This document shows positions 4,769 to 49,241 of a stretch of DNA of 64,000 nucleotides, in pieces. The notes beneath the pieces were generated by a model. The model saw only the letters and a list, made by a program, of their open reading frames with translations, did no database searches and was not told the DNA's origin. Every line of letters begins with the position of its first letter. Position 1 is the first letter of the stretch. Location of the stretch: the NCBI GenBank assembly GCA_949152475.1, contig OX424559.1:18011809-18075808 (forward strand). Direction: 5' to 3'. The position numbers were made by a program, and so were the translations under genes. Source of the stretch: Terebella lapidaria. Lineage: Eukaryota > Annelida > Polychaeta > Terebellida > Terebellidae.

Positions 4769-4785
4769 TTTCCAAATGGTCTTCC

Positions 4786-4800
4786 CTGTAATTGATATAA
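4786..4800 (-). other. Candidate 3' splice acceptor upstream of the Schlafen-like start
   Basis: Reading the minus strand, an AT-rich tract ends in TATATCAATTACAG followed by GGAAGACC, and the ATG comes 18 bases into the exon. This suggests a non-coding first exon further right with the coding sequence beginning soon after the acceptor, a common arrangement in Schlafen genes. It also argues against the extra 25 N-terminal codons. Confidence 0.45.
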
Positions 4801-4843
4801 TATTGATATAATTAATGATCCAATAGAATGATACATATATCAC

Positions 4844-5834
4844 GTATAATATGAAAAGAAACTACAAGGTCACGAAAAGGTCAAAATAAATAAAGCACAA
4901 TAACTCTCTATAGTTATGATTTTGTTTTCTATTATTTTTTAGTATTTTACGTGGCGAATTCCCATCCTTTTTTGTATGACCGATAATCGTAAGACCAAAA
5001 TTCCCTATCATCAACAAGGTTGAAAATTTTAGGATCAGCTGAAACTATAGTGATCAACACAAAGGGGCATGAATTTGCAATCTTTGATTGTCCAGTAACA
5101 TACAAATCAGATATTAGTTTGTCATGGACTGATATATTTTGACACAGACCATACTACCTTGGAGATTTTTTTTTCGATCCCAAAAGACCATGAAATCTCA
5201 ATAACTCAACGGAAACCAAAATGGTTGTTTTAGATAATATGTCACTGGGCACGTAACACCCCATGAATACCCCCATTTCGGTGTGTGTAGATGTTTCTCA
5301 ATTTAAAAAAGGGCTGATGTATCAGAGGTTTAATTTTTGTTCTAATTTCAGTGAGGATACAAAATGTGTAAGACGGAAAGAATATGGCATTCATTCAGTT
5401 TATGAGTAGAATTGTTAGAGGAGAGTGCACCACATGGGCCACAAAATGTTGATACATCTAGTAATGTCCTATGTAGATACCAATGTGGACTAGTACATCA
5501 CCTGGCTATCCGCATGATACACGTGAGAGGGTTGTTTTGGAACATTTTCACTACACAACATCTTCTACTTTGTGAACTTGCCTGATCCCATGGAACAAAG
5601 CCTATGTCACAACTCACTAAAATCTTATAAATAACTAGACGTCACGGCCCGAAGATCCCTCGGGGCCACTCAACGGAGAAAGTGTAGGCTAATATAATAT
5701 ATATATAAAATAACCCAACATACCCCTAAGACATGTCTGGGTGACGATCGTAAAAATAATGTCTGTTTCACATGACGACTTAGCAGAAAGGTTTTACGCT
5801 AAGGTCAAAGATCACCCAGCATACCCCCTTAATA
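4844..5834. other. AT-rich flank between the Schlafen-like gene and the satellite
   Basis: No coding region is visible. This stretch should contain the promoter or first intron of the leftward gene, but I cannot pick a core promoter. Near the satellite boundary there is a GC-rich hairpin-like stretch at about 5647-5669 (GGCCCGAAG...CTCGGGGCC), a short TA run at about 5693-5707, and two similar CCCA(A/G)CATACCCC stretches near 5713 and 5816. Confidence 0.4.
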
Positions 5835-6990
5835 GTGTATAGATCGTGATTATATGTAGGTGTACGGATCGAGATTACATGTAGGTCTATAGATTGTAAT
5901 TATATGTAGGTGTATAGGCCGTGACTACATGTAGCTATATATATCGTGATTACATATAGGTGTATGGATCGTGATTACATGTTGGTGTATAGATCGTGAT
6001 TACATATAGGTGTATGGATCGTGATTACATGCACGTGTATAGACCATGATTACATGTAGGTGTATAGATCGTGATAACATGTAGGTTATAGACCGTGATT
6101 ACATGTAGGTGTATAGATCGTGATTACATGTAGATGTATAGATCGTGATTACATGTAGGTGTATAGACCGTGATTGCATGTAGATGTATAGATCGTGATT
6201 ACATGTAGCTTTATAGACCGTGATTACATGTAGCTATATAGACTGTGAGTACATGTAGATGTATAGACTGTGATTACATGTACGTGTATAGATCGTGATT
6301 ACATGTAGGTGTATAGACCGTGATTACATGTAGATGTATAGATCGTGATTACATGTAGCTTTATAGACCGTGATTACATGTAGCTATATAGACTGTGAGT
6401 ACATGTAGATGTATAGACCGTGATTACATGTACGTGTATAGATCGTGATTACATGTAGGTGTATATATCGTGATTACATGTAGGTGTATAGACCGTGATT
6501 ACATGTAGCTATATAAATCGTGATTACATGTAGATGTATAGACCGTGACTACATGTAGGTGTATAGATCGTGATTACATGTAGCTATATAGATCGTGATT
6601 ACATGTAGGTGTATAGGTCGTGATTACATGTAGGTGTATAGATTGTGATTACATGTAGGTGTATAAATCGTGATTACATGTAGCTATATAAATCATGATT
6701 ACATGCAGGTGTATAGATCGTGATTACATGTAGCTATATAGATCGTGATGACATGTAGGTGTATAGATTGTGATTACATGTAGGTGTATAGATCGTGATT
6801 ACATGTAGGTGTATAGATCGTGATTACATGTAGATGTATAGATCGTGATTACATGTAGGTGTATAGATCGTGATTACATGTAGCTATATAGATCATGATT
6901 ACATGTAGGTGTATAGATCGTGATTACATGTAGGTGTATAGATCGTGATAACATGTAGATGTATAGACCGTGATTACATGTAGGTGTATA
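5835..6990 (+). repeat. 25-bp satellite, block A (forward polarity, about 46 units)
   Basis: The unit is GATCGTGATTACATG followed by TAGGTGTATA, 25 bp in all, repeated head to tail. The first few units next to unique sequence are the most divergent, as expected at a satellite edge. This block is enriched in units carrying TAGCTATATA or TAGATGTATA in place of TAGGTGTATA. No coding potential is present: 25 is not a multiple of three, so every frame passes through all phases and meets stops. Confidence 0.97.
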
Positions 6991-9900
6991 CATCACGGTC
7001 TATACACCTACATGTAATCACGATCTATACAACTACAAGTAATCACGGTCTATATAGCTACATGTAATCACGGTCTATACACCTACATGTAATCATGATA
7101 TATACACCTACATGTAATCACGATTTATACACCTACATGTAATCACGATCTATACACCTACATGTAATCACGATCTATACACCTACATGTAATCATGGTC
7201 AATACACCTACATGTAATCACGGTCTATACACCTACATGTAATCACGATCTATACACCTACATGTAATCACGATCTATACAAATACATGTCATCACGGTC
7301 TATACATCTACATGTAATCACGATCTATATAGCTACATGTAATCAAGTTCTATACACCTACATGTAATCACGATCTATACACCTACATGTAATCACGATC
7401 TATACACCTACATGTCATCACGGTCTATACATCTACATGTAATCACGACCTATACACCTACATGTAATCACGATCTATACACCTACATGTAATCACGGTC
7501 TATACACCTACATGTAATCACAATCTATACACCTACATGTAATCAAGGTCTTTACACCTACATGTAATCACGGTCTATACACCTACATGTAATCACGATT
7601 TATATAGCTACATGTAATCACGGTCTATACACCTACATGTAATCACGATATATACACCTACATGTAATCACGATCTATACACGTACATGTAATCACGGTC
7701 TATACATCTACATGTACTCACAGTCTATATAGCTACATGTAATCACGGTCTATAAACCTACATGTAATCACGATCTATACATCTACATGTAATCGCGGTC
7801 TATACACCTACATGTAATCACGATCTATACATCTACATGTAATCACGATCTATACACGGGCTATACATCTACATGTAATCACGGTCTATACACCTACATG
7901 TATTCACAGTCTATACATCTACATGTAATCACGATATATACACCTTCATGTAATCACAATCTATATAGCTTCATGTAATCACGGTCTATATACCTACATG
8001 TAATCACGATATATACACCTACATGTAATCACGATCTATACACCTATATGTAATCACGATCTATACATCTACATGTAATCACGATCTATACACCTACATG
8101 TAATCACTATCTATACACCTACATGTAATCACGGTCTATACACCTACATGTAATCACGATCTATACACCTATATGTAATCACGACCTATACATCTACATG
8201 TAATCACGATCTATACATCTACATGTAATCACGATCTATACACCTACATGTAATCACGATCTATACACCTACATGTAATCACGATCTATACACCTACATG
8301 TAATCATGATCTATACACCGACATGTAATCACGATCTATACACCTACATGTAATCACGGTCTATACATCTACATGTAATCACGATCTATACACCTACATG
8401 TAATCACGGTCTATACACCTACATGTAATCATGGTCTATACACCTACATGTAATCACGATCTATACACCTACATGTAATCAAGGTCGATACACCTACATG
8501 TAATCATGGTCTATACACCTACATGTAATCACGATCTATACACCTACATGTAATCACAATCTATACACCTAAATGTAATCACGATATATACACCTACATG
8601 TAATCACCGTCTATACACCTACATGTAATCACGATCTATATAGCTACATGTAATCACGTTCTATACACCTACATGTAATCACGATCTATACACCTACATG
8701 TAATCATGATCCATACACCTACATGTAATCAGGGTCTATACACCTACATGTAGTCATGATCTATACACCTACATGTAATCACGATCTATACACCTACATG
8801 TCATCATGATCCATACACCTACATGTAATCACGGTCTATACACCTACATGTAATCACGGTCTATACACCTACATGTTGTCATGATCTATACACGTACATG
8901 TAATTACGATCTATACACCTACATGTAATCATGATCCATACACCTACATGTAATCACGGTCTATACACCTACATGTAATCATGATCTATACACCTACATG
9001 TAATCACGATCTATACACCTACATGTAATCACGATCTATACACCTACATGTAATCATGATCCATACACCTATATGTAATCACGGTCTATACACCTACATG
9101 TAATCATGATCCATACACCTACATGTAATCACGATCTATACACCTACATGTAATCATGATCTATACACCTACATGTAGTCATGATCTATACACGTACATG
9201 TAATTACGATCTATACACCTACATGTAATCATGATCCATACACCTACATGTAATCACGGTCTATACACCTACATGTAGTCATGATCTATACACCTACATG
9301 TAATCACGATCTATACACCTACATGTAATCACGATCTATACACCTACATGTAATCATGATCCATACACCTACATGTAATCACGGTCTATACACCTACATG
9401 TAGTCATGATCTATACACCTACATGTAATCACGATCTATATAGCTACATGTAATCATGATCTATACACCTACATGTAATCACGGTCTGTGCACCTACATG
9501 TAATCATGATCTATACACCTACATGTGATCACTATCTATACACCTACATGTAATCACGGTCTATACACCTATATGTAATCAAGATCTATACACCTATATG
9601 TAATCACGATCTATACATCTACATGTAATCACGATCTATACACCTACATGTAATCACGATCTATACACGTACATGTAATTACGATCTATACACCTACATG
9701 TAATCATGATCCATACACCAACATGTAATCACGGTCTATACACCTACATGTAATCACGGTCTATACACCTACATGTAATCACGATCTATACACCTACATG
9801 TAATCATGATCCATACACCTACATGTAATCACGGTCTATACACCTACATGTATTCACGATCTATACACCTACATGTAATCATGATCTATACACCTACATG

Positions 9901-12400
9901 TAATCACGGTCTATACACCTACAGGTAATCACGATCTATACACCTACATGTAATCACGATCTATACACCTACATGTAATCACGGTCTATACACCTACATG
10001 TAGTCATGATCTATACACCTACATGTAATCACGATCTATACACCTACATGTAATCACGATCTATACACCTACATGTAATCATGATCCATACACCTACATG
10101 TAATCACGGTCTATACACCTACATGTAATCACGATCTATACACCTACATGTAATCACGATCTATACACCTACATGTAATCACCGTCTATACACCTACATG
10201 TAATCACGATCTATATAGCTACATGTAATCACGTTCTATACACCTACATGTAATCACGATCTATACACCTACATGTAATCATGATCCATACACCTACATG
10301 TAATCACGGTCTATACACCTACATGTTGTCATGATCTATACACGTACATGTAATTACGATCTATACACCTACATGTAATCATTATCCATACACCTACATG
10401 TAATCACGGTCTATACACCTACATGTAATCATGATCTATACACCTACATGTAATCACGATCTATACACCTACATGTAATCACGATCTATACACCTACATG
10501 TAATCATGATCCATACACCTATATGTAATCACGGTCCATACACCTACATGTAATCATGATCCATACACCTACATGTAATCACGATCTATACACCTACATG
10601 TAATCACGATCTATACACCTACATGTAGTCATGATCTATACACGTACATGTAATTACGATCTATACACCTAAATCTAATCATGATCCATACACCTACATG
10701 TAATCACGGTCTATACACCTACATGTAGTCATGATCTATACACCTACATGTAATCACGATCTATACACCTACATGTAATCACGATCTATACACCTACATG
10801 TAATCATGATCCATACACCTACATGTAATCACGGTCTATACACCTACATGTAGTCATGATCTATACACCTACATGTAATCACGATCTATATAGCTACATG
10901 TAATCATGATCTATACACCTACATGTAATCATGGTATGTACACCTACATGTAATCATGATCTATACACCTACATGTGATCACTATCTATACACCTACATG
11001 TAATCACGGTCTATACACCTACATGTAATCATGATCTATACACCTACATGTAATCACTATCTATACACCTACATGTAATCACGGTCTATACACCTATATG
11101 TAATCAAGATCTATACACCTATATGTAATCACGATCTATACATCTACATGTAATCACGATCTATACACCTACATGTAATCACGATCTATACACGTACATG
11201 TAATTACGATCTATACACCTACATGTAATCATGATCCATACACCAACATGTAATCACGGTCTATACACCTACATGTAATCATGATCTATACACCTACATG
11301 TAATCACGATCTATACACCTACATGTAATCACGACCTATACACCTACATGTAATCATGATCTATACACCTACATGTAATCACGGTCTATACACCTACAGG
11401 TAATCCCAATCTATACACCTACATGTAATCACGATCTATACACCTACATGTAATCACGGTCTATACACCTACATGTAGTCATGATCTATACACCTACATG
11501 TAATCACGATCTATACACCTACATGTAATCATGATCCATACACCTACATGTAATCACGGTCTATACACCTACATTTAATCACGATCTATACACCTACATG
11601 TAATCACGATCTATACACCTACATGTAATCACGGTCTATACACCTACAGGTAATCACGATCTATACACCTACATGTAATCACAATCTATACACCTACATG
11701 TAATCACGATATATACACCTACATGTAATCACGGTCTATACACCTACATGTAATCACGATATATACACCTACATGTAATCACGGTCTATACACCTACATG
11801 TAATCACGATCTATATAGCTACATGTAATCACGTTCTATACACCTACATGTAATCACGATCCATACACCTACATGTAATCATGGTCTATACACCTACATG
11901 TAATCACGATCTATACACCGACATGTAATCACGATCTATAAACCTACATGTAATCACGGTCTATACACCTGCATGTAATCACGGTCTATATAGCTACATG
12001 TAATCACGATCTATACACCTACATGTAATCACGATCTATATAGCTACATATAATCACGATCTATACATCTACATATAATCACGATCTATATAGCTACATG
12101 TAATCATGGTCTATACACCTACATGTAATCATGATCTATAGAGCTACATGTAATCACGATCTATACATCTACATGCAATCACGATCTATACACCTACATG
12201 TAATCACGATCTATACATCTACATGTAATCACGATCTATACACTTACATGTCATCACGATCTATACATCTACATGTAATCACGATCTATACATCTACATG
12301 TAATCACGATCTATACACCTACATGTAATCACGATCTATACACCTACATGTAATCACGATCTATACATCTACATGTAATCACGGTCTATATAGCTACATG
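6991..12400 (-). repeat. 25-bp satellite, block B (reverse polarity, about 216 units)
   Basis: The same 25-bp unit is present in the opposite orientation (CACCTACATGTAATCACG then ATCTATA). It is head-to-head with block A at its left edge and joins block C at its right edge. A characteristic variant is CATGATCCATACACC. Rare variant units recur at regular distance, for example the block with ATGTTGTCATGATC at 8874 and 10324 (offset 1450 bp, 58 units), so this block has its own higher-order duplication. Confidence 0.97.
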
Positions 12401-14599
12401 TGATTACATGTAGGTGTATAGATCGTGATTACGTGTAGGTGTATAGATCGTGATTACATGTACGTGTATAGATCGTGATTACATGTAGGTGTATAGATCC
12501 TGATTACATGTAGGTGTATATTACGTGATTACATGTAGGTGTATAGACCGTGATTACATTTAGATGTATAGCACGTGATTACATGTAGCTATATAGATCG
12601 TGATTACATATAGGTGTATATATCGTAGGTGTATATTACGAGATTACATGTAGGTGTTTAGACCGTGATTACATGTAGGTGTATAGATCGTGATTACATG
12701 TAGGTGTATAAATCGTGATTACATGTAGGTACATAGACAGTGATTACATGTAGGTATATAGACCGTGATTACATGTAGGTATATAGATCGTGATTACATG
12801 TAGGTATATAGATCGTGATTACATGTAGGTATATAGACAGTGATTACATGTAGGTGTATAGACCGTGATTACATGTAGATGTATAGACTGTGATTACATG
12901 TAGGTGTATAGATCGTGATTACATGTAGATGTACAGACTGTGATTACATGTAGGTGTATAGATCGTGATTACATGTAGATGTATAGACTGTGATTACATG
13001 TAGGTGTATAGATTGTGATTACATGTAGGTGTATAGACCATGATTACATGTAGGTGTATAGATCGTGCTTACATATAGGTGTATAGATCATGATTACATG
13101 TAGGTGTATAGATCGTGATTACATGTAGGTGTATAGATGTTGATTACATGTAGGTGTATAGATCGTTACTACATGTTGGTGTATAGATGGTGATTACATG
13201 TAGGTGTATAGATCGTGATTACATGTAGGTGTATATATCGTGATTACATGTAGGTGTATATATCGTTACTACATGTACGTGTATAGATCGTGATTACATG
13301 TCGGTGTATAGATCGTTACTACATGTAGGTGTATAGATCGTTACTACATGTAGGTGTATACATCATGATTACATGTAGGTGTATAGATCATGATTACATG
13401 TAGGTGTATAGATCGTGATTACATGTAGGTGTATAGACCGTGATTACATGTAGGTGTATAGATCGTGATTACATGTAGGTGTATAGACCGTGATTACATG
13501 TAGGTGTATAGATCGTGATTACATGTAGGTGCATAGATCGTGATTACATGTAGGTGTATAGATCGTCATTACATGTAGGTGTATAGATCGTGATTACATG
13601 TAGGTGTATAGATCGTCATTACATGTAGGTGTATAGATCGGGATTACATGCAGGTGTATAGATCGCTACTACATGTTGGTGTATAGATCATGATTACATG
13701 TAGGTGTATAGATCGTGATTACATGTAGGTGTATAGATCGTGATTACATGTAGGTGTATAGACCGTGACTACATGTAGGTGTATAGATCGTTACTACATG
13801 TAGGTGTATGGATCGTGACTACATGTAGGTGTATAGATCGTGATTACATGTAGGTGTATAGATCATGATTACATGTAGGTGTATAGATGGTGATTACATG
13901 TAGGTGTATAGATGGTGATTACATGTAGGTGTATAGATCGTGATTACATGTAGATGTATAGATCGTCATTACATGTAGGTGTATAGATCGTGATTACATG
14001 TAGGTGTATAGATCGTGATTACATGTAGGTGTATAGATCGTGATTACATGTAGGTGTAAAGATCATGATTACATGTAGGTGTATAGACCGTGATTACATG
14101 TAGGTGTGTAGATCGTGATTACATGTAGGTGTATAGGTCGTTACTACATGTAGGTGGATAGACCGTGATTACATGTAGGTGCATAGATCGTGATTACATG
14201 TAGGTGCATAGATCGTGATTACATGTAGGTGTATAGACTGTGATTACATGTAGGTGTATAGACGGTGATTACATGTAGGTGCATAGATCGTGATTACATG
14301 TAGGTGTATAGACTGTGATTACATGTAGGTGTATAGACGGTGATTACATGTAGGTGTATAGGTCGTGATTACATGTAGGTGTATAGGTCGTGATTACATG
14401 TAGGTGTATAGACCGTGATTACATGTAGGTGTATAGGTCGTGATTACATGTAGGTGTATAGGTCGTGATTACATGTAGGTGTATAGACCGTGATTACATG
14501 TAGGTGTATAGATCGTGATTACATGTAGGTGTATAGGTCGTGATTACATGTAGGTGTATAGGTCGTGATTACATGTAGGTGTATAGACCGTGATTACAT

Positions 14600-16060
14600 G
14601 TAGGTGTATAGATCGTGATTACATGTAGGTGTATAGAAGGTGATTACATGTAGGTGTATGGATCGTGATTACATGTAGGTGTATAGACCGTGATTACATG
14701 TAGGTGTATAAATCGTGATTACACGTAGGTGTATAGATCGTGATTACATGTAGGTGTATTAATCGTGATTACATGTAGGTGTATAGATCGTGATTACATG
14801 TAGGTGTATAGATCGCGATTACATGTAGGTGTATAGATCGTGATTACATGTAGGTGTACAGATCGTGATTACATGTAGGGGTATAGATCGTGATTACATG
14901 TAGGTGTATTAATCGTGATTACATGTAGGTGTATAGATCGTGATTACATGTAGGTGTATTAATCGTGACTACATGTAGGTGTATAGATCGTGATTACATG
15001 TAGGTGTATAGATCGTGATGACATGTAGGTGTATATATCATGATTACATGTAGGTGTATAGATCGTGACTACATGTAGGTGTATAGATCGTGATGACATG
15101 TAGGTGTATATATCATGATTACATGTAGGTGTATAGATCGTGACTACATGTAGGTTTATAGATCGTGATTACATGTAGGTGTATAGATCATGATTACATG
15201 TAGGTGTATAGATGGTGATTACATGTAGGTGTATAGATGGTGATTACATGTAGGTGTATAGATGGTGATTACATGTAGGTGCATAGATCGTGATTACATG
15301 TAGATGTATAGATCGTGATTACATGTAGGTGGATAGATCGTGATTACATGTAGGTGTATAGAAGGTGATTACATGTAGGTGTATGGATCGTGATTACATG
15401 TAGGTGTATAGACCGTGATTACATGTAGGTGTATAAATCGTGATTACACGTACGTGTATAGATCGTGATTACATGTAGGTGTATTAATCGTGATTACATG
15501 TAGGTGTATAGATCGTGATTACATGTAGGTGTATAGATCGTGATTACATGTAGGTGTATAGATCGTGATTACATGTAGGTGTACAGATCGTGATTACATG
15601 TAGGGGTATAGATCGTGATTACATGTAGGTGTATTAATCGTGATTACATGTAGGTGTATAGATCGTGATTACATGTAGGTGTATTAATCGTGATTACATG
15701 TAGGTGTATAGATCGTGATTACATGTAGGGGTATAGATCGTGATGACATGTAGGTGTATATATCATGATTACATGTAGGTGTATAGATCGTGACTACATG
15801 TAGGTGTATAGATCGTGATGACATGTAGGTGTATATATCATGATTACATGTAGGTGTATAGATCGTGACTACATGTAGGTTTATAGATCGTGATTACATG
15901 TAGGTGTATAGATCATGATTACATGTAGGTGTATAGATGGTGATTACATGTAGGTGTATAGATGGTGATTACATGTAGGTGCATAGATCGTGATTACATG
16001 TAGATGTATAGATCGTGATTACATGTAGGTGGATAGATCGTGATTACATGTAGGTGTATA
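14600..16060 (+). repeat. Higher-order duplication inside block C, about 0.7 kb period
   Basis: A series of rare variants (TAGAAGG, then GTATGGATC, GTATAAATC with ACACGTA, several GTATTAATC, and GATGACATG with TATATCATG) occurs in the same order from about 14634 and again from about 15359, an offset of 725 bp (29 units). Near the end the offset becomes 700 bp, so one unit has been lost. Confidence 0.8.
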
Positions 16061-17759
16061 GATCGTGATTACATGTAGATGTATAGATCGTGATTACATG
16101 TAGGTGTATAGATCGTGATTACATGTAGGTGTAAAGATCATGATTACATGTAGGTGTATAGATCGTGATTACATGTAGGTGTATAGACCGTGATTACATG
16201 TAGGTGTATAGATCCTGATTACATGTAGGTGTATAGATCGTTACTACATGTAGGTGTATAGACCGTGATTATATGTAGGTGCATAGATCGTGATTACATG
16301 TAGGTGTATAGACTGTGATTACATGCAGGTGTATAGACGGTGATTACATGTAGGTGTATAGGTCGTGATTACATGTAGGTGTATAGGTCGTGATTACATG
16401 TAGGTGTATAGACCGTGATTACATGTAGGTGTATAGGTCGTGATTACATGTAGGTGTATAGGTCGTGATTACATGTAGGTGTATAGACCGTGATTACATG
16501 TAGGTGTATAGATCGTGATTACATGTAGGTGTATAGGTCGTGATTACATGTAGGTGTATAGGTCGTGATTACATGTAGGTGTATAGACCGTGATTACATG
16601 TAGGTGTATAGATCGTGATTACATGTAGGTGTATAGACGGTGATTACATGTAGGTGTATGGATCGTGATTACATGTAGGTGTACAGATCGTGATTACATG
16701 TAGGTGTATAGATCGTGATTACATGTAGGTGAAGAGATCGTGATTACATGTAGGTGTATATATCATGATTACATGTAGGTGTATAGACCGTGATTACATG
16801 TAGGTGTATAGATCGTGATTACATGTAGGTGTATAGATCGTGATTACACGTAGGTGTACAGATCGTGATTAGATGTAGGTGTACAGATCGTGATTACATG
16901 TAGGTGTATTAATCGTGATTACATGTAGGTGTATAGATCGTGATTACATGTAGGTGTATTAATCGTGATTACATGTAGGTGTATAGATCGTGATTACATG
17001 TAGGTGTATAGATCGTGATTACATGTAGGTGTATATATCATGATTACATGTAGGTGTATAGACCGTGATTACATGTAGGTGTATAGATCGTGATTACATG
17101 TAGGTGTATAGACCGTGATTACATGTAGGAGTATAGATCGTGATTACATGTAGGTGTATAGACTGTGATTACATGTAGGTGTATAGATCGTGATTACATG
17201 TTGGTGTATAGATCGTGATTACATGTAGGTGTATAGATCGTGATTACATGTAGGTGTATAGACTGTGATTACATGTAGGTGTATAGATCGTGATTACATG
17301 TAGGTGTATAGATCGTGATTACATGTAGGTGTATAGATCGTGATTACATGTAGGTGTACAGATCGTGATTACATGTAGGTGTATAGATCGTGATTACATG
17401 TAGGTGTATTAATCGTGATTACATGTAGGTGTATAGATCGTGATTACATGTAGGTGTATTAATCGTGATTACATGTAGGTGTATAGATCGTGATTACATG
17501 TAGGTGTATAGATCGTGATGACATGTAGGTGTATATATCATGATTACATGTAGGTGTATAGATCGTGACTACATGTAGGTGTATAGATCGTGACTACATG
17601 TAGGTGTATAGATCATGATTACATGTAGGTGTATAGATCCTGATTACATGTAGGTGTATAGATCGTTACTACATGTAGGTGTATAGACCGTGATTACATG
17701 TAGGTGCATAGATCGTGATTACATGTAGGTGTATAGACTGTGATTACATGTAGGTGTAT

Positions 17760-18560
17760 AGACGGTGATTACATGTAGGTGTATAGGTCGTGATGTCGTG
17801 ATTACATGTAGGTGTATAGGTCGTGATTACATGTAGGTGTATAGACCGTGATTACATGTAGGTGTATAGGTCGTGATTACATGTAGGTGTATAGGTCGTG
17901 ATTACATGTAGGTGTATAGACCGTGATTACATGTAGGTGTATAGGTCGTGATTACATGTAGGTGTATAGACCGTGATTACATGTAGGTGTATAGATCGTG
18001 ATTACATGTAGGTGTATAGATCGTGATTACATGTAGGTGTATAGATCGTGATTACATGTAGGTGTAAAGATCATGATTACATGTAGGTGTATAGATCGTG
18101 ATTACATGTAGGTGTATAGACCGTGATTAGATGTAGGTGTATAGATCCTGATTACATGTAGGTGTATAGATCGTTACTACATGTAGGTGTATAGACCGTG
18201 ATTACATGTAGGTGCATAGATCGTGATTACATGTAGGTGTATAGACTGTGATTACATGTAGGTGTATAGACGGTGATTACATGTAGGTGTATAGGTCGTG
18301 ATGTCGTGATTACATGTAGGTGTATAGGTCGTGATTACATGTAGGTGTATAGACCGTGATTACATGTAGGTGTATAGGTCGTGATTACATGTAGGTGTAT
18401 AGGTCGTGATTACATGTAGGTGTATAGACCGTGATTACATGTAGGTGTATAGGTCGTGATTACATGTAGGTGTATAGACCGTGATTACATGTAGGTGTAT
18501 AGATCGTGATTACATGTAGGTGTATAGGTCGTGATTACATGTAGATGTATAGACCGTGAT
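17760..18560 (+). repeat. Higher-order duplication inside block C, 508-bp period
   Basis: A unit carrying an extra GTCGTGAT (8 bp) occurs at 17786 and again at 18294. The flanking order of variants is the same, and the offset of 508 bp equals 20 units plus the 8 extra bases. This marks a duplication of about 0.5 kb. Confidence 0.75.
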
Positions 18561-23125: not shown

Positions 23126-26100
23126 AGATCATGATTACATGTAGGTGTATAGATCATGATTACATGTAGGTGTATAGACCGTGATTACATGTAGCTATAT
23201 AGACCGTGATTACTTGTAGACGTATAGATCGTGATTACATGTAGGTGTATAGACCGTGATTACATGTAGGTGTATAGATCGTGATTACATATAGGTGTAT
23301 AGATCGTTACTACATGTTGGTGTATAGATCGTTACTACATGTAGGTGTATAGATCGTTACTACATGTAGGTGTATAGATCGTGATAACATGTAGGTGTAT
23401 AGATCGTTACTACATGAAGGTGTATAGATCGCGATAACATGTAGGTGTATAGATCGTGATAACATGTAGGTGTTAGATCGTGATTACATGTAGGTGTATA
23501 GATCGTGATTACATGTAGGTGTATAGATCGTGATTACATGTAGGTGTATAGACCGTGATTACATGTAGGTGTATATATCGTGATTACATTTAGGTGTATT
23601 GATCGTGATTACATGTAGGTATATAGATCGTGATTACATGTAGGTGTACAGATCGTGATTTCATGTAGGTGTATAGATCGTGATTACATGTAGGTGTATA
23701 TATCGTGATTACATGTAGGTGTATAGACCGTGATTACATGTAGGTGTAGAGATCGTGATTACATGTAGGTGTATAGATCGTGATTACATGTAGGTGTATA
23801 GACTGTGATTACATGTAGGTGTATAGATCGTGATCACATGTTGGTGTATAGATCGTGATTACATGTAGGTGTATAGATCGTGATTACATGTAGGTGTATA
23901 GACCGTGATTACATGTAGGTGTATAGATCGTGATTACATGTTGGTGTATAGATCGTGATTACATGTAGGTGTATAGACTGTGATTACATGTAGGTGTATT
24001 GATCGTGATTACATGTAGGTGTATAGATCGTGATTACATGTAGATGTATAGACCGTGATTACATGTAGGTGTATGAATCATGATTACATGTAGGTGTATA
24101 GATCGTGATTACATGTAGGTGTATGAATCATGATTACATGTAGGTGTATAGATCGTCATTACATGTAGGTGTGTAGATCGGGATTACATGTAGGTGTATA
24201 GATCATGATTACATGTAGGTGTATAGATCATGGTTACATGTAGGTGTATAGATCATGATTACATGTAGGTGTATAGATCGTCATTACATGTAGGTGTATA
24301 GACCGTGATTACATGTAGGTGTATAGATCGTGATTACATATAGGTGTATAGATCGTTACTACATGTTGGTGTATAGATCGTTACTACATGTAGGTGTATA
24401 GATCGTTACTACATGTAGGTGTATAGATCGTGATAACATGTAGGTGTATAGATCGTTACTACATGAAGGTGTATAGATCGTGATAACATGTAGGTGTATA
24501 GATCGTGATAACATGTAGGTGTTAGATCGTGATTACATGTAGGTGTATAGATCGTGATTACATGTAGGTGTATAGATCGTGATTACATGTAGGTGTATAG
24601 ACCGTGATTACATGTAGGTGTATATATCGTGATTACATTTAGGTGTATACATCGTGATTACATGTAGGTATATAGATCGTGATTACATGTAGGTGTACAG
24701 ATCGTGATTTCATGTAGGTGTATAGATCGTGATTACATGTAGGTGTATATATCGTGATTACATGTAGGTGTATAGACCGTGATTACATGTAGGTGTAGAG
24801 ATCGTGATTACATGTAGGTGTATAGATCGTGATTACATGTAGGTGTATAGATCGTGATAACATGTAGGTGTTAGATCGTGATTACATGTAGGTGTATAGA
24901 CCGTGATTACATGTAGGTGTAGAGATCGTGATTACATGTAGGTGTAGAGATCGTGATTGCATGTAGGTGTACAGATCGTGATTACATGTAGGTGTAAAGA
25001 TCGTGATTACATGTAGGTGTATAGACCGTGATTACATGTAGGTGTAGAGATCGTGATTACATGTAGGTGTATAGATCGTGATTACATGTAGGTGTATAGA
25101 TCGTGATTACATGTAGGTGTATGGATCATGATTGCATGAAGGTGCATAGATCGTGATTACATGTAGGTGTATAGATCGTGATTACATGTAGGTGTATAGA
25201 TCGTGATTACATGTAGGTGTATGAATCATGATTACATGTAGGTGTATGAATCATGATTGCATGTAGGTGTACAGATCGTGATTACATGTAGGTGTAAAGA
25301 TCGTGATTACATGTAGGTGTATAGACCGTGATTGCATGTAGGTGTAGAGATCGTGATTATATGTAGGTGTATAGATCGTTTTTACGTGTAGGTGTATGAA
25401 TCATGATTACATGTAGGTGTATGAATCATGATTGCATGTAGGTGCATAGATCGTGATTACATGTGGGTGTATAGATCGTGATTACATGTAAGTGTATAGA
25501 TCGTGATTACATGTAGGTGTATGAATCATGATTACATGTAGGTGTATAGATCGTGATTACATGTAGGTGTATGAATCATGATTGCATGTAGGTGCATAGA
25601 TCGTGATTACATGTAGGTGTATAGATCGTGATTACATGTAGGTGTATAGATCGTGATTACATGTAGGTGTATAGATCGTGATCACATGTAGGTGTATGAA
25701 TCATGATTACATGTAGGTGTATAGATCGTGATTACATGTAGGTGTACAGATCGTGATTACATGTAGGTGTATAGATCGTGATTACATGTAGGTGTACAGA
25801 TCGTGATTACATGTAAGTGTATAGAACGTGTTTACATGTAAGTGTATAGATCGTGATTACATGTAGGTGTATAGATCGTGATTACATGGAAGTGTATAGA
25901 TCGTGATTACATGTAGGTGTACAGATCGTGATTACATGTAGGTGTATAGACCGTGATTACATGTAGGTGTATAGATCGTGATTACATGTAGTTGTATAGA
26001 TCGTGATTACATGTAGGTGTATAGATCGTGATTGCATGTAGGTGTATAGATCGTGATTACATGTAGGTGTATAGATCGTGATTACATGTAGCTATATAGA

Positions 26101-29100
26101 TCGTGATTACATGTAGGTGTATAGATCGTGATTACACGTAGGTGTATAGACCGTGATTACATGTAGGTGTATAGATCATGATTACATGTAGGTGTACGGA
26201 TTGTGATTACCTGTAGGTGTATAGATTGTGATTACATGTTGGTGTATAGATCGTGATTACATGTAGGTGTATGGATCGTGATTACATGTAGATGTATAGA
26301 TCGTGATTACATGTTGGTGTACAGATCGTGATTACATGTAGGTGTATAGATTGTGATTACATGTAGGTGTATAGATCGTCATTACATGTAGGTGTGTAGA
26401 TCGTGATTACATGTAGGTTAACAGATCGTGATTACATGTAGGTGTATAGATCGTGATTACATGTTGGTGTACAGATCGTGATTACATGTAGGTGTATAGA
26501 TTGTGATTACATGTTGGTGTATAGATCGTGATTACATGTACGTGTATGGATCGTGATTACCTGTAGGTGTATAGACCGTGATTACATGTAGGTGTATAGA
26601 CCGTTACTACATGTAAGTGTATAGATCGTGATTACATGTAGGTGTATAGATCGTGATTACATGTAGGTGTATAGATCGTTACTACATGTAGGTGTATAGA
26701 TCGTCATTACATGTAGGTGTATAGATCGTGATTACATGTAGGTGTATAGATCGTTACTACATGTAGGTGTATAGATCGTCATTATATGTCGGTGTATAGA
26801 TCGTGATTACATGTAGGTGTATAGATCGTGATTACATGTAGGTGTATAGATCGTCATTACATGTAGGTGTATAGATCGTCATTACATGTAGGTGTGTAGA
26901 TCGTGATTACATGTAGGTGTACAGATCGTGATTACATGTAGGTGTATAGATCGTGATTACATGTTGGTGTACAGATCGTGATTACATGTAGGTGTATAGA
27001 TTGTGATTACATGTTGGTGTATAGATCGTGATTACATGTACGTGTATGGATCGTGATTACCTGTAGGTGTATAGACCGTGATTACATGTAGGTGTATAGA
27101 CCGTTACTACATGTAGGTGTATAGATAGTGATTACATGTAGGTGTATAGATCGTGATTACATGTAGGTGTATAGACCGTGATTACATGTAGCTATATAGA
27201 CCGTGATTACTTGTAGACGTATAGATCGTGATTACAAGTAGGTGTATAGACCGTGATTACATGTAGGTGTATAGACCGTGATTACATGTAGGTGTATAGA
27301 TCGTGATTACATGTGGGTGTATAGATCGTGATTACATGTAGGTGTACAGATTGTGATTACATGTAGGTGTATAGATCGTGATTACATGTAGGTGTATTAA
27401 TCGTGATTACATGTAGGTGTATAGATCGTGATTACATGTAGGTGTATAGATCGTGATTACATGTAGGTGTATATATCATGATTACATGTAGGTGTATACA
27501 CAGTGATAACATGTAGGTGTATAGATTGTGATTACATGTAGGTGTATAGATCGTGATTACATGTAGGTGTACAGATCGTGATTGCATGTAGGTGTATAGA
27601 TCGTGATTACATGTAGGTGTATTAATCGTGATTACATGTAGGTGTATAGATCGTGATTACATGTAGGTGTATAGACCGTGATTACATGTAGGAGTATAGA
27701 TCGTGATTACATGTAGGTGTATAGACTGTGATTACATGTAGGTGTATAGATCGTGATTACATGTTGGTGTATAGATCGTGATTACATGTAGGTGTATAGA
27801 TCGTGATTACATCTAGGTGTATAGACCGTGATTACATGTAGGTGTACAGATCGTGATTACATGTAGGTGTATAGATCGTGATTACATGTAGGTGTACAGA
27901 TTGTGATTACATGTAGGTGTACAGATCGTGATTACATGTTGGTGTATAGATCGTGATTACATGTAGGTGTATATATCGTGATTACATGTAGGTGTATGAA
28001 TCATGATTACATGTAGGTGTATAGATCGTCATTACATGTAGGTGTGTAGATCGGGATTACATGTAGGTGTATAGATCATGATTACATGTAGGTGTATAGA
28101 TCATGATTACATGTAGGTGTATAGACCGTGATTACATGTAGCTATATAGACCGTGATTACTTGTAGACGTATAGATCGTGATTACATGTAGGTGTATAGA
28201 CCGTGATTACATGTAGGTGTATAGATCGTGATTACATATAGGTGTATAGATCGTTACTACATGTTGGTGTATAGATCGTTACTACATGTAGGTGTATAGA
28301 TCGTTACTACATGTAGGTGTATAGATCGTGATAACATGTAGGTGTATAGATCGTTACTACATGAAGGTGTATAGATCGCGATAACATGTAGGTGTATAGA
28401 TCGTGATAACATGTAGGTGTTAGATCGTGATTACATGTAGGTGTATAGATCGTGATTACATGTAGGTGTATAGATCGTGATTACATGTAGGTGTATAGAC
28501 CGTGATTACATGTAGGTGTATATATCGTGATTACATTTAGGTGTATTGATCGTGATTACATGTAGGTATATAGATCGTGATTACATGTAGGTGTACAGAT
28601 CGTGATTTCATGTAGGTGTATATATCGTGATTACATGTAGGTGTATATATCGTGATTACATGTAGGTGTATAGACCGTGATTACATGTAGGTGTAGAGAT
28701 CGTGATTACATGTAGGTGTATAGATCGTGATTACATGTAGGTGTATAGACTGTGATTACATGTAGGTGTATAGATCGTGATCACATGTTGGTGTATAGAT
28801 CGTGATTACATGTAGGTGTATAGATCGTGATTACATGTAGGTGTATAGACCGTGATTACATGTAGGTGTATAGATCGTGATTACATGTTGGTGTATAGAT
28901 CGTGATTACATGTAGGTGTATAGACTGTGATTACATGTAGGTGTATTGATCGTGATTACATGTAGGTGTATAGATCGTGATTACATGTAGATGTATAGAC
29001 CGTGATTACATGTAGGTGTATGAATCATGATTACATGTAGGTGTATAGATCGTGATTACATGTAGGTGTATGAATCATGATTACATGTAGGTGTATAGAT

Positions 29101-32100
29101 CGTCATTACATGTAGGTGTGTAGATCGGGATTACATGTAGGTGTATAGATCATGATTACATGTAGGTGTATAGATCATGGTTACATGTAGGTGTATAGAT
29201 CATGATTACATGTAGGTGTATAGATCGTCATTACATGTAGGTGTATAGACCGTGATTACATGTAGGTGTATAGATCGTGATTACATATAGGTGTATAGAT
29301 CGTTACTACATGTTGGTGTATAGATCGTTACTACATGTAGGTGTATAGATCGTTACTACATGTAGGTGTATAGATCGTGATAACATGTAGGTGTATAGAT
29401 CGTTACTACATGAAGGTGTATAGATCGTGATAACATGTAGGTGTATAGATCGTGATAACATGTAGGTGTTAGATCGTGATTACATGTAGGTGTATAGATC
29501 GTGATTACATGTAGGTGTATAGATCGTGATTACATGTAGGTGTATAGACCGTGATTACATGTAGGTGTATATATCGTGATTACATTTAGGTGTATACATC
29601 GTGATTACATGTAGGTATATAGATCGTGATTACATGTAGGTGTACAGATCGTGATTTCATGTAGGTGTATAGATCGTGATTACATGTAGGTGTATATATC
29701 GTGATTACATGTAGGTGTATAGACCGTGATTACATGTAGGTGTAGAGATCGTGATTACATGTAGGTGTATAGATCGTGATTACATGTAGGTGTATAGATC
29801 GTGATAACATGTAGGTGTTAGATCGTGATTACATGTAGGTGTATAGACCGTGATTACATGTAGGTGTAGAGATCGTGATTACATGTAGGTGTAGAGATCG
29901 TGATTACATGTAGGTGTATAGATCGTGATTACATGTAGGTGTATAGATCATGATTGCATGTAGGTGCATAGATCGTGATTACATGTAGGTGTATAGATCG
30001 TGATTACATGTAGGTGTATAGATCGTGATTACATGTAGGTGTATAGATCGTGATTACATGTAGGTGTATAGATCGTTTTTACGTGTAGGTGTATGAATCA
30101 TGATTACATGTAGGTGTATGAATCATGATTGCATGTAGGTGCATAGATCGTGATTACATGTGGGTGTATAGATCGTGATTACATGTAAGTGTATAGATCG
30201 TGATTACATGTAGGTGTATGAATCATGATTACACGTAGGCGTATGAATCATGATTGCATGTAGGTGTACAGATCGTGATTACATGTAGGTGTAAAGATCG
30301 TGATTACATGTAGGTGTATAGACCGTGATTACATGTAGGTGTAGAGATCGTGATTACATGTAGGTGTATAGATCGTGATTACATGTAGGTGTATAGATCG
30401 TGATTACATGTAGGTGTATGGATCATGATTGCATGAAGGTGCATAGATCGTGATTACATGTAGGTGTATAGATCGTGATTACATGTAGGTGTATAGATCG
30501 TGATTACATGTAGGTGTATGAATCATGATTACATGTAGGTGTATGAATCATGATTGCATGTAGGTGTACAGATCGTGATTACATGTAGGTGTAAAGATCG
30601 TGATTACATGTAGGTGTATAGACCGTGATTGCATGTAGGTGTAGAGATCGTGATTACATGTAGGTGTATAGATCGTGATTACATGTAGGTGTATAGATCG
30701 TGATTACATGTAGGTGTATAGATCATGATTGCATGTAGGTGCATAGATCGTGATTACATGTAGGTGTATAGATCGTGATTACATGTAGGTGTATAGATCG
30801 TGATTACATGTAGGTGTATAGATCGTGATTACATGTAGGTGTATAGATCGTGATTACATGTAGGTGTATGAATCATGATTGCATGTAGGTGCATAGATCG
30901 TGATTACATGTAGGTGTATAGATCGTGATTACATGTAGGTGTATAGATCGTGATTACATGTAGGTGTATAGATCGTGATTACATGTAGGTGTATGAATCA
31001 TGATTACATGTAGGTGTATAGATCGTGATTACATGTAGGTGTACAGATCGTGATTACATGTAGGTGTATAGATCGTGATTACATGTAGGTGTACAGATCG
31101 TGATTACATGTAAGTGTATAGAACGTGTTTACATGTAAGTGTATAGATCGTGATTACATGTAGGTGTATAGATCGTGATTACATGGAAGTGTATAGATCG
31201 TGATTACATGTAGGTGTACAGATCGTGATTACATGTAGGTGTATAGACCGTGATTACATGTAGGTGTATAGATCGTGATTACATGTAGTTGTATAGATCG
31301 TGATTACATGTAGGTGTATGGATCGTGATTGCATGTAGGTGTATAGATCGTGATTACATGTAGGTGTATAGATCGTGATTACATGTAGCTATATAGATCG
31401 TGATTACATGTAGGTGTATAGATCGTGATTACACGTAGGTGTATAGACCGTGATTACATGTAGGTGTATAGATCATGATTACATGTAGGTGTACGGATTG
31501 TGATTACCTGTAGGTGTATAGATTGTGATTACATGTTGGTGTATAGATCGTGATTACATGTAGGTGTATGGATCGTGATTACATGTAGATGTATAGATCG
31601 TGATTACATGTTGGTGTACAGATCGTGATTACATGTAGGTGTATAGATTGTGATTACATGTAGGTGTATAGATCGTCATTACATGTAGGTGTGTAGATCG
31701 TGATTACATGTAGGTGTACAGATCGTGATTACATGTAGGTGTATAGATCGTGATTACATGTTGGTGTACAGATCGTGATTACATGTAGGTGTATAGATTG
31801 TGATTACATGTTGGTGTATAGATCGTGATTACATGTACGTGTATGGATCTTGATTACCTGTAGGTGTATAGACCGTGATTACATGTAGGTGTATAGACCG
31901 TTACTACATGTAAGTGTATAGATCGTGATTACATGTAGGTGTATAGATCGTGATTACATGTAGGTGTATAGATCGTTACTACATGTAGGTGTATAGATCG
32001 TCATTACATGTAGGTGTATAGATCGTGATTACATGTAGGTGTATAGATCGTTACTACATGTAGGTGTATAGATCGTCATTATATGTAGGTGTATAGATCG

Positions 32101-32450
32101 TGATTACATGTAGGTGTATAGATCGTGATTACATGTAGGTGTATAGATCGTCATTACATGTAGGTGTATAGATCGTCATTACATGTAGGTGTGTAGATCG
32201 TGATTACATGTAGGTGTACAGATCGTGATTACATGTAGGTGTATAGATCGTGATTACATGTTGGTGTACAGATCGTGATTACATGTAGGTGTATAGATTG
32301 TGATTACATGTTGGTGTATAGATCGTGATTACATGTACGTGTATGGATCGTGATTACCTGTAGGTGTATAGACCGTGATTACATGTAGGTGTATAGACCG
32401 TTACTACATGTAGGTGTATAGATAGTGATTACATGTAGGTGTATAGATCG
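22236..32450 (+). repeat. Higher-order tandem duplication inside block C, about 5-kb period
   Basis: The segment from about 22236 to 27170 reappears from about 27183 to 32450. Landmark 24-bp units at 23472, 24521 and 24870 recur at 28419, 29468 and 29817, a constant offset of 4947 bp (198 units less three single-base deletions). Further right the offset rises to 5297 bp at the GAACGTGTTTACATG landmark (25821/31118), so about 14 units were gained in one copy. A smaller 1049-bp duplication (23472/24521) is nested inside each copy. Confidence 0.88.
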
Positions 32451-34856
32451 TGATTACATGTAGGTGTATAGATCGTTACTACATGTAAGTGTATAGATCG
32501 TTACTACATGTAGGTGTATAGATCGTTACTACATGTAAGTGTACAGATCGTTACTACATGTAGGTGTATAGAGCATTACTACATGTAGGTGTATAGATCG
32601 TGATTACATGTAGGTGTACAGATAGTGATTACATGTAGGTGTATAGATCGTGATTACATGTAGGTGTACGGATCGTGATTACATGTAAGTGTATAGATCA
32701 TGATTACATGTAGGTGCATAGATCGTGATTACATGTAGGTGTATAGATCGTGATTACATGTAGGTGTATAGATCGTGATTACATGTAGGTGTATAGATCG
32801 TGATTACATGTAGGTGTATAGATCGTTACTACATGTAGGTGTATAGATCGTGATTACATGTAGGTGTATAGATCGTTACTACATGTAGGTGTATAGATCG
32901 TTACTACATGTAGGTGTATAGATCGTGATTACATGTAGGTGTATAGATCGTGATTACATGTAGGTGTATAGATCGTGATTACATGTAGGTGTATAGATCG
33001 TGATTACATGTAGGTGTACAGATCGTGATTACATGTAGGTGTAAAGACCGTGATTACATGTAGTTGTATAGATCATGATTACATGTAGGAGTAAAGATGG
33101 TGATTACATGTAGGTGTATAGATCGTTACTACATGTAGGTGTATAGATCGTGATTACATGTTGGTGTATAGATCGTGATTATATGTAGGTGTATAGATCG
33201 TGATTACATGTAGGTGTATAGACCATGATTACATGTAGGTGTATAGATCATGATTGCATGTAGGTGTATAGATCGTGATTACATGTAGGTGTATAGACTG
33301 TGATTACATGTAGGTGTATAGACCGTGATTACATGTAGGTGTATAGATCGTTACTACATGTAGGTGTACAGATCGTGATTACATGTAGGTGTATAGACCG
33401 TGATTACATGTAGGTGTATAGACTGTGATTACATGTAGGTGTATAGACCGTGATTACATGTAGGTGTATAGACTGTGATTACATGTAGGTGTATAGACTG
33501 TGATTACATGTAGGTGTATAGACCGTGATTACATGTAGGTGTACAGATCGTGATTACATGTAGGTGTATAGACTGTGATTACATGTAGGTGTATAGACTG
33601 TGATTACATGTAGGTGTATAGATCGTGATTACATGTAGGTGTACAGAACGTGATTACATGTAGGTGTATAGATCGTGATTACATGTAGGTGTATAGATCG
33701 TGACTACATGTAGGTGTATAGACCGTGATTACATGTATGTGTATAGATTGTGATTACATGTAGGTGTATAGATCGTGCTTACATGTTGGTGTATAGATCG
33801 TGATTACATGTAGAGGTATAGATCGTTACTACATGTAGGTGTATAGACCGTGATTACATGTAGGTGTACAGAACGTGATTACATGTAGGTGTACAGATCG
33901 TGATTACATGTAGGTGTATAGATCATAATTACATGTAGGTGTATAGATCGTGATTACATGTAGGTGTGTAGATCGTGATTACATGTTGGTGTATAGATCG
34001 TGATTACATGTAGGTGTATAGATCGTGATTACATGTAGGTGTATAGATCGTGACTACATGTAGGTGTATAGACCGTGATTACATGTATGTGTATAGATTG
34101 TGATTACATGTAGGTGTATAGATCGTGCTTACATGTTGGTGTATAGATCGTGATTACATGTAGGTGTATAGATCGTGATTACGTGTAGGTGTATAGACCA
34201 TGATTACATGTAGGTGTATAGACCGTGACTACATGTAGGTGTATAGATCGTGATTACATGCAGGTGTATAGATTGTGATTACATGTAGGTGTATAGACTG
34301 TGACTACATGTAGGTGTATAGATCGTGATTACATGTAGGAGTATAAATCGAGATTACATGTAGGTGTATAGATCGTGACTGCATGTAGCTGTATAGACTG
34401 TGATTACATGTAGGTGTATGGACCGTGACTAGACCGTGATTACATGTAGGTGTATAGATCGTCATTACATGTAGGTGTATAGACCGTGATTACATGTAGG
34501 TGTATAGATCGTGATTACATGTAGGTGTATAGACCGTGATTACATGTAGGTGTATATACCTTGATTACAGGTAGGTGTATAGACCGTGATTACATGTAGG
34601 TGTATAGACCGTGATTACATGTAGGTGTATAGACCGTGATTACATGTAGGTGTATATACCTTGATTACAGGTAGGTGTATAGACCGTGATTACATGTAGG
34701 TGTATAGACCGTGATTACATGTAGGTGTATAGACCGTGATTACATGTAGGTGTATAGATCGTGATTACATGTAGGTGTATAGACCGTGATTACATGTAGG
34801 TGTATAGATCGTGATTACATGTAGGTGTATAGACCGTGATTACATGTAGGTGTATA

Positions 34857-35953
34857 CACGGGGGTCAAGAGTACCTGAATTATTCAGAGGAACAGTGGCG
34901 CCCCTGAATTATTGGGAGTGGGGGCGTGAGATCTTTGGAGGAAAACGTGATAGTAGGTTGCTAAAAAGCCTCAAATAACGCGCCTACGATGTGTGAACAA
35001 AGCAATGCCACCATAGAGCATGGGATATAGTTATGTATTTGTTGATACATATATTAGTTCATTAGCTTCCATAGTTTATTCACAATCATGTTCACCGATT
35101 CTGAACACCGATAGAAATGAACCCTAATAACACATGGAATTACTCTCAAACAAACAAACTCTAGTTATGCGTCAGTAAACACTCAAAGGTACCCTAACTC
35201 TGAAGTAAGATGATACTAGAACATCGGCTTGCAATTGTAGGGTGTTTTATTGTGTTTTTGTTTCATCCGAGTCATATCTATTTGTTTTTTGGCCGGGGTA
35301 TGATTTATAGAGAGGAGGTACATGAATCTTCCGGAGATTCATGAAAAATAAACCTACCTTCCTGAATACTCCGTCTTTCCCCGTCAGTGCTTGCCCTGAG
35401 GATTATGCATTTTTAAAGTGAGACACTGAATAGACTTTTAAACCACAATATGAGTACATTCGCAATGATTTATATATTTTTTAAATATCAATATTGCCCC
35501 CTCCCAATAAATCATACCCGGACCAAAATACACATAAGGTTAATCAGAAACATGATAAAACACCTTACAATCAAACGCCAATGTTCTAATACTACTTTAC
35601 TATTGACATCCTTTGAAGTTGGTGTACTTTTGAGTGTTTATATGTGCAAAACCAGAGTACTTCCACATATTATTGGTCTCGGTGGGTTCATTTTTATCGG
35701 TGTTCAAAATCGGTGAACATGATTGTGAATAAACTAGGAAAGCTAGGGAATCTGTTTATTGTCAATAAATACTGAACTATATCCCATACTCTATGGTGGC
35801 ATTGGTTTGTCTGTTCAAACATCATAGTCGAGTTATTTGCGGCATTTTAGCAGCCTACTGTCACGTTTCACTCCAAATATCTGACGCCGGCACTCCCAAT
35901 ACTTCAGGGGCGCCAATGTTCCTCCGAATATTTCGGTTCGCTTCACCCCCGTG
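34857..35953. mobile_element. Foldback element inserted in the satellite (about 460-bp inverted arms)
   Basis: Satellite units on both sides are interrupted by 1097 bp whose two halves are inverted copies of each other. The left arm (34857-35318) begins CACGGGGGT and the right arm (35497-35953) ends ACCCCCGTG. Matching segments include GGCGCCCCTGAA, ATGCCACCATAGAG and TTCACAATCATGTTCACCGA. The central 179 bp contains a short palindrome (35321-35343, CATGAATCT and AGATTCATG arms). The flanks read GTATA before and GTATG after, fitting a 5-bp target duplication with one later change. No transposase frame is present, so it is non-autonomous. A CAC terminus with a 5-bp duplication is reminiscent of Transib-like elements, but the match is too weak to assign a family. 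Arm divergence is clearly visible, so it is not recent. Confidence 0.88.
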
Positions 35954-36030
35954 GTATGGATTGTGACTGCATGCAGGTGTATAAATCATGAATACATGCA
36001 GGTGTATAGACCGTGATTACATGTTAGTGT
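35954..36030 (+). repeat. 25-bp satellite, terminal remnant (about 3 units)
   Basis: Three degenerate units of the same satellite and polarity as block C resume immediately after the foldback element and decay into unique sequence after TTAGTGTATAGATTA. They show that the foldback element inserted close to the edge of an existing array rather than marking its end. Confidence 0.9.
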
Positions 36031-49230: not shown

Positions 49231-49241
49231 GTATAATGCAT

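What the first reader, a model, noticed from the sequence alone, without database searches (positions are those of the whole stretch)
5835..36030. A 29-kb, 25-bp-unit satellite with two polarity reversals
Roughly 1,160 units fill 45% of the window. The array runs forward (about 46 units), flips (about 216 units) and flips back (about 898 units). Most satellite arrays keep one polarity over such distances, so two internal inversions make a very large imperfect inverted repeat able to form cruciforms or to be transcribed into long double-stranded RNA. Candidate roles are heterochromatin, a centromere-like or neocentromere-like array, or a fragile site; none is shown by sequence alone.
Basis: seen in the sequence. 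Interest (0 to 1): 0.75.

Follow-up and report, generated by a model that had tools for sequence, protein, structure and literature searches.

The report
Gene-cluster minisatellite with a shared inversion
A short repeat in front of a multiplying Schlafen-like gene has grown from about two units to over a thousand, has part of itself flipped, and appears with the same flips at a second place 12 million bases away, which points to repeat growth plus copying between gene duplicates rather than a centromere.

Summary
The interpretation changes. In this 761.6-Mb genome all 2,252 unit hits (<=2 mismatches) lie in 14 fetched places, 13 on chromosome C5 and one on an unplaced contig, so it is not a genome-wide or centromere-type satellite. 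Twelve of the 14 can be assigned to a Schlafen-like gene of at least 30 copies. Six gene copies carry only 1-2 units, the likely seed. A second locus, 11.9 Mb away and inverted, has the same architecture (39+/104-/612+/insertion/3+); each junction occurs exactly twice genome-wide. Outside the arrays, the two loci are 97-100% identical only from about 4.55 to 36.6 kb; beyond, the window resembles a third locus on both sides. Best reading: a promoter-side minisatellite expanded, was partly inverted once, and moved between inverted gene duplicates by non-allelic recombination. Centromeric or heterochromatic roles are unsupported. How the inversion arose remains open.

The parts
1766..4861 (-). 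Schlafen-like open reading frame (1,031 codons stop to stop; likely ATG at 4768, my reading), one of at least 30 copies; the array lies 1,067 bp upstream of the ATG
   Evidence: Pfam SLFN_AlbA_2 E 4.9e-06, 27.5 bits vs cut-off 25.3; 30 copies at >=70% aa identity; distance
4545..4570 (.). left edge of the tract shared with the second locus, inside the gene
   Evidence: 42 of 42 discriminating sites C273-like at 4214-4544; 67 of 71 copy-like at 4571-5479
5835..6990 (+). array block A, 46 units, + polarity
6991..6992 (.). junction J1, polarity switch + to -; its 39-bp core is present exactly twice in the genome at <=3 mismatches
6992..12401 (-). array block B, 215 units, inverted
12394..12402 (.). 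junction J2, polarity switch - to +; its 39-bp core is present exactly twice in the genome at <=3 mismatches
12400..34856 (+). array block C, 896 units, with kb-size internal block duplications (spacings 2,325, 4,947 and 5,297 bp)
34857..35953 (.). 1,097-bp palindromic MITE-like insertion (CACGGGGG...CCCCCGTG ends, flanked by GTATA/GTATG) of a genome-wide family
   Evidence: inverted arms; near-full-length copies on other chromosomes; ends
35954..36037 (+). last degenerate units beyond the insertion
36038..37140 (.). conserved right flank used for the right-flank tree; right edge of the shared tract lies in 36614-37099

Best explanation
This is a minisatellite of a duplicated gene cluster, not a centromere-type satellite. 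Shown: the unit occurs upstream of Schlafen-like gene copies, from 1-2 units in six copies up to 758 and 1,160 units in two. Shown: the two giant arrays share one inverted block, the same two junctions and one transposon-like insertion. Shown: they sit in a roughly 32-kb tract (window length) whose non-array parts are 97-100% identical between the loci and whose flanks have different relatives. Inferred: a two-unit seed grew by slippage and unequal exchange, with kb-size blocks duplicated; one stretch was inverted once in a common ancestor of the two arrays, by a repair event that was not a loss-free cut-and-flip; the tract was then copied from the 29.97-Mb locus into the 18.01-Mb locus by non-allelic recombination (conversion, break-induced replication or two crossovers); since then the arrays have changed length independently. 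No selected function is required.
For: All 2,252 genome-wide unit hits fall in 14 fetched places. Unit polarity relative to the gene is the same in all 10 other array or seed places that I could assign to a gene (L012 and L020 could not be) and in the 4 further seeds, so block B is the derived, inverted part. All six seeds follow a shared anchor sequence. The copy has the same architecture, the same junctions and an insertion with 3 differences in 1,097 bp. Discriminating sites switch from C273-like to copy-like between 4544 and 4571, and back across 36614-37099. Window flanks match C273_654 at 98-99% (3.9-4.5 kb) and 94-99% (36.9-38.4 kb). The copy's gene body matches 29.089 at 98-100% in 8 consecutive 300-bp tiles, which is why the copy looks like the donor. 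AU tests reject window+29.977 for the gene 5' segment (p 8e-42), and reject window+C273_654 (p 4e-9) and 29.977+29.089 (p 1e-86) for the right flank. Main block-duplication spacings differ between the two arrays.
Against: Donor and recipient roles rest on short flanks (about 0.6 kb left and 1.5 kb right) and on a third locus on an unplaced contig. Tracts of 32 kb are longer than ordinary meiotic conversion (recalled). Identity inside the arrays is hard to define because unit numbers differ: tiles of block A fall from 98-100% to 92-96% toward J1. The right flank of the copy outside the tract has no single clear backbone. The loci tested were picked after seeing similarity, and both tree segments straddle a tract edge, so the AU p-values overstate certainty. 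Only 11 of the 14 copies with units in fetched upstream DNA carry the anchor by my exact 10-base test, so one seed for all arrays is not shown. The seeds' right flank has no match beside the arrays, so how seeds and arrays connect on that side is unexplained. Growth by slippage or unequal exchange is inferred from patterns.
Confidence: 0.75

Rival explanations
1. The flips are assembly artefacts (fold-back chimeras or mis-joined repeat contigs).
For: No reads were available; arrays of 20-29 kb are hard to assemble (recalled); the junction phases do not fit a loss-free inversion (my reading of the sequences).
Against: Two loci 11.9 Mb apart with different flanks and different unit numbers carry the same junctions and order of blocks.
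Confidence: 0.06
2. The 29.97-Mb locus is a misplaced allele (haplotypic duplication) of the window, so there is one locus and no transfer.
For: 98-100% identity per 100 bp over the non-array parts of the tract; retained haplotypes are common in heterozygous genomes (recalled).
Against: Identity falls to 78-95% per 300-bp tile left of the tract, and homology with the copy's right side that I held (29,941,000 to about 29,955,800) ends near window 39.3 kb apart from one 97-bp match. Gene trees put the copy with 29.089 and C273_277, and the window with C273_654.
Confidence: 0.08
3. A centromere-like, neocentromere-like or heterochromatic satellite.
For: Long array; dyad symmetry is proposed to matter at beetle (peri)centromeres (PMC13081366, passages).
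Against: 2,252 near-units in 14 places of C5 and one unplaced contig only, mostly near apparently single-exon genes.
Confidence: 0.03
4. The array is the tandem-repeat core of a mobile element (Helentron/HINE type) that spreads it.
For: Such elements carry satellite-like arrays in an oyster (PMC7492417, abstract and one section); the right flank is conserved across several arrays.
Against: Copies are confined to C5 and one unplaced contig rather than dispersed, and the left flanks are gene upstream regions. HINE end structures were not searched for.
Confidence: 0.05
5. The array acts on its gene: repeat-length-dependent promoter control, or a long hairpin transcript feeding small RNAs.
For: It lies 1,067 bp upstream of the likely start codon, and the inverted arms are 90-91% complementary over 1.1 and 5.4 kb.
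Against: No expression or small-RNA data; unit number varies from 1 to 1,160 between copies, most of which keep open frames; 16 of 30 copies have no unit in the upstream stretch fetched, two of them with an array 7-15 kb away.
Confidence: 0.08

Closest known systems
Sp185/333 immune gene clusters of the purple sea urchin (PMC5103432; abstract and section 17 read)
   Same: Duplicating gene cluster on segmental duplications, with tandem repeats beside the genes and proposed conversion and rearrangement; repeats in both orientations there too.
   Different: There GA and GAT microsatellites surround genes and duplication edges; here one 25-bp minisatellite sits upstream of the gene, reaches 29 kb and has an inverted block inside a single array. 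Immune function of this gene is not shown.
Macro-dyad satellite arrays of Tribolium beetles (PMC13081366; search passages incl. abstract)
   Same: Arrays that switch polarity into inverted subarrays of several kb, with conserved inversion sites.
   Different: Those are major and minor satellites of multi-megabase putative (peri)centromeric regions; here 2 of 14 gene-cluster places. The authors state such symmetries were documented only in Tribolium.
Cg_HINE satellite-carrying Helentrons of Crassostrea gigas (PMC7492417; abstract and one section read)
   Same: Satellite-like arrays with recurrent flanks.
   Different: Dispersed by mobile elements; here confined to one chromosome and one unplaced contig.
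Ordinary hypervariable minisatellites (recalled)
   Same: Short strand-skewed unit, strong length variation, variant units in patches.
   Different: Unusually long, and part of the array is inverted.

Membership tests
Minisatellite / locally expanded tandem repeat | Head-to-tail array of a unit of about 10-100 bp at one or few loci | tested here: met
   25-bp unit, 14 places genome-wide at <=2 mismatches
Minisatellite / locally expanded tandem repeat | Length variation between copies | tested here: met
   1-2 to 1,160 units between paralogous places; between individuals not testable
Centromeric satellite | Abundant on most or all chromosomes, or a megabase array on one | tested here: not met
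   2,252 hits, all on C5 and C273, largest array 29 kb; collapsed arrays not excluded
Centromeric satellite | CENP-A occupancy | not testable with these tools
   no chromatin data
Tribolium-type macro-dyad satellite | Polarity switch inside arrays with conserved inversion sites | tested here: met
   two junctions, each found exactly twice, with 0-1 mismatch in 39 bp
Tribolium-type macro-dyad satellite | Symmetry is the predominant habit of the satellite across the genome | tested here: not met
   only 2 of 14 places have a switch
Helentron/HINE-carried repeat | Same element ends at dispersed insertion sites | tested here: not met
   all unit hits on C5 and C273; left flanks are gene upstream regions
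Helentron/HINE-carried repeat | subTIRs, microsatellite and 3' palindrome of HINE elements | not tested
   termini were not searched for
Schlafen gene family | Schlafen AlbA_2 domain | tested here: met
   E 4.9e-06, above the Pfam cut-off; no solved-structure match by sequence at E 0.001; NCBIfam has no match above cut-off

The most novel reading that the evidence does not exclude
The array is an exchange hinge: its repeats, and the inverted block in particular, promote recombination between inverted gene duplicates, so that promoters and 5' ends of Schlafen-like genes are shuffled across more than 10 Mb of one chromosome. The inverted array would then be an engine of diversification of a possible defence gene family, and a macro-dyad symmetry arising in a gene cluster rather than in centromeric satellite.
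Probability: 0.15. Interest if true: 0.72.

Novelty: new variant of a known kind. Interest (0 to 1): 0.5.

Why it matters
The origin of long satellite arrays is rarely visible because intermediates are lost. Here places with 1-2, 16, 45, 62, about 92, 113, 178, 219, 758 and 1,160 units coexist beside copies of one gene family, so growth, inversion and transfer can be ordered. It also gives a polarity-switching array in a gene cluster, which lets one ask whether such symmetry arises simply by rearrangement.

Tried and rejected
Loss-free inversion of one segment: from the junction sequences (phases read by hand), + units stop at unit position 7 and - units begin at 16 at J1 (one odd base between); - units stop at 18 and + units begin at 14 at J2 (two bases could belong to either). 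A cut-and-flip without loss needs 8 and 17 at J2, so it is rejected; small loss or gain at the breaks, or a fold-back copy, remains open. Fold-back at J1: one exact 174-bp inverted match (6360-6533 with 7583-7756) and a 300-bp tile at 97.3% hint at it, but whole arms (90.4%) are scarcely above offset controls (88.8-89.7%).

Array as recombination hotspot: not shown. The closest relative also changes within the gene, away from the array.

Right-flank homology of the two-unit seeds (three seeds tried): none next to the arrays; the matches found look like other repeats.

Coding content right of the array: five window ORFs gave no Pfam match above a cut-off (12 ORFs of >=120 aa listed).

Identity of the organism: not established. 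A mollusc hemocyanin family search was uninformative because no control genome matched either. The unit has no exact match in viral contigs. Rfam found nothing in the window at gathering threshold.

Literature: nine full-text searches. None of the listed titles and abstract starts described this repeat; with an unnamed organism this is weak evidence.
Full report
OBSERVATION. The window (G000:C5:18,011,809-18,075,808 of a 761.6-Mb, 438-contig genome) holds a 25-bp tandem array, consensus GTGTATAGATCGTGATTACATGTAG. Units run + (46; 5835-6990), - (215; 6992-12401), + (896; to 34856) and, after an insertion, + (3; 35952-36026). GC skew changes sign at both switches. Chance is excluded: of 20 shuffles 17 gave no unit at >=18/25 and 3 gave one; the rest of the window gave none.

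Positions 34857-35953 are a 1,097-bp palindrome of a family with at least 25 near-full-length copies at 81-88% identity elsewhere in the genome (40 of 314 candidates scored). Three other arrays (L015, L018, L019) keep the right end of the element at the same spot, and two (L009, L021) run into the right flank without it. The insertion thus marks a subset of the arrays as related.

DISTRIBUTION. The unit with <=2 mismatches occurs 1,132 times forward and 1,120 times reverse in the genome, against 0 for the reversed control. The same count on the 14 fetched places gives exactly 1,132 and 1,120: window 1,047, the 29.97-Mb copy 677, eleven other C5 places, and C273. At the looser >=18/25 threshold the twelve other places hold 219, 178, 113, 93, 92, 62, 45, 37, 16, 13, 2 and 2 units, each of one polarity. 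Only 2 of 14 places contain a polarity switch. More degenerate seeds, such as those, fall below the <=2-mismatch count, so others like them may exist elsewhere.

HOST GENE. The array starts 1,067 bp upstream of the likely start codon of an open 1,031-codon Schlafen-like frame (Pfam SLFN_AlbA_2, E 4.9e-06; a PhoH match stays below its cut-off). The genome has at least 30 copies at >=70% amino-acid identity: 25 on C5, 4 on C273, 1 on C197; 23 of 30 have no stop inside the match (45 of 258 candidates scored, so a lower bound). A fragment lies at C5:29.58 Mb, and more distant relatives (38-51% identity) lie at C5:0.6-3.7 Mb and on C6, C7, C14, C16 and C17. Of the 30 copies, 14 show units in the upstream stretch I fetched and 16 do not; two of the 16 have an array 7.5 and 15 kb away that I assign by position. 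Stretches were 0.8-9.4 kb long. Six copies have only 1-2 degenerate units after a shared anchor, the plausible seed state; the anchor was found by exact test in 11 of the 14 copies with units. On the gene tree, array, seed and no-unit copies are clustered but interleaved (8 changes for three states, shuffled mean 13.4), so there were several gains, losses or transfers. Two places, L012 (23.57 Mb) and L020 (35.41 Mb), I could not assign to a gene.

SECOND LOCUS. C5:29,955,719-29,975,845, in opposite orientation and 11.9 Mb away, has 39 +, 104 -, 612 +, the same insertion, then 3 +. The 39-bp core of J1 is identical there and that of J2 differs by one base; each core occurs exactly twice in the genome at <=3 mismatches, at these two loci.

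SHARED TRACT. Outside the arrays, identity between the loci is 98-100% per 100 bp from about 4,600 to the array and from the insertion to about 36,600, and falls beyond. Inside the array, unit numbers differ; tiles of block A are 98-100% identical at first and 92-96% toward J1. At sites where the second locus and C273_654 differ, the window agrees with C273 at 50 of 61 sites from 3704 to 4199 and 42 of 42 from 4214 to 4544, then with the copy at 67 of 71 from 4571 to 5479; on the right it agrees with the copy at 71 of 71 sites from 36074 to 36614, is mixed to about 37,055, and agrees with C273 at 68 of 73 from 37099 to 37950. In the copy, the gene body matches another locus (29.089) at 98-100% over 8 consecutive 300-bp tiles. 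The simplest reading is copying of about 32 kb (window length) from the 29.97-Mb locus into the window locus; the reverse is less likely but not excluded. AU tests reject one history for gene 5' end and right flank (L020 left out of the right-flank test). The tests used loci chosen after inspection and segments that straddle the tract edges, so their p-values overstate certainty.

TURNOVER WITHIN THE ARRAYS. Block C of the window has exact 200-300-mers repeated mainly at 2,325, 4,947 and 5,297 bp; the copy's main spacings are 3,224 and 2,599 (a 1,049-bp spacing is common in the copy and barely present in the window). This suggests kb-size duplications in each array after the two loci came to share the tract.

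INVERSION. Block B is the derived part, because units keep one polarity relative to the gene at the 10 other places that I could assign and at the 4 further seeds. Junction phases do not fit a loss-free inversion (my reading). A fold-back copy near J1 is hinted at but not established.

COMPARISON. Tribolium satellites form inverted subarrays with conserved inversion sites, stated by their authors to be documented only in that genus (PMC13081366, passages). Few inversions are reported within human alpha-satellite higher-order repeats (PMC9859433, one passage). The sea-urchin Sp185/333 family is the nearest gene-cluster analogue I found (PMC5103432, abstract and section 17). Schlafen genes are among those upregulated in mussel gills after a bacterial challenge (PMC7772429, passages), which makes an immune role possible here but does not show it.

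VERDICT. It is a gene-cluster minisatellite with a rare shared inversion and a readable history.

Noticed in passing
55554-55982: Seven copies of a 61-bp unit at 100% identity, so a very recent or homogenised expansion.
   Followed up: no
59029-59674: A 21-bp array with palindromic-looking units that also shows 42- and 63-bp periods; related stretches appear near the L013 seed.
   Followed up: no
41879-42544: Tandem repeats of 111-234 bp rich in TGACCTTGA/AAGGTCA half-sites; similar repeats lie near other copies, e.g. L033.
   Followed up: no
43000-52200: Stretches 97-99% identical to C5:30.801-30.822 Mb and to C5:18.718-18.725 Mb, so the segmental duplications extend beyond the array.
   Followed up: partly
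52195-54000: A dispersed repeat family with matches on many chromosomes.
   Followed up: no
G000:C5, C273 and C197: At least 30 copies of an apparently single-exon Schlafen-like gene; the window copy is mosaic in its relationships along the gene.
   Followed up: partly
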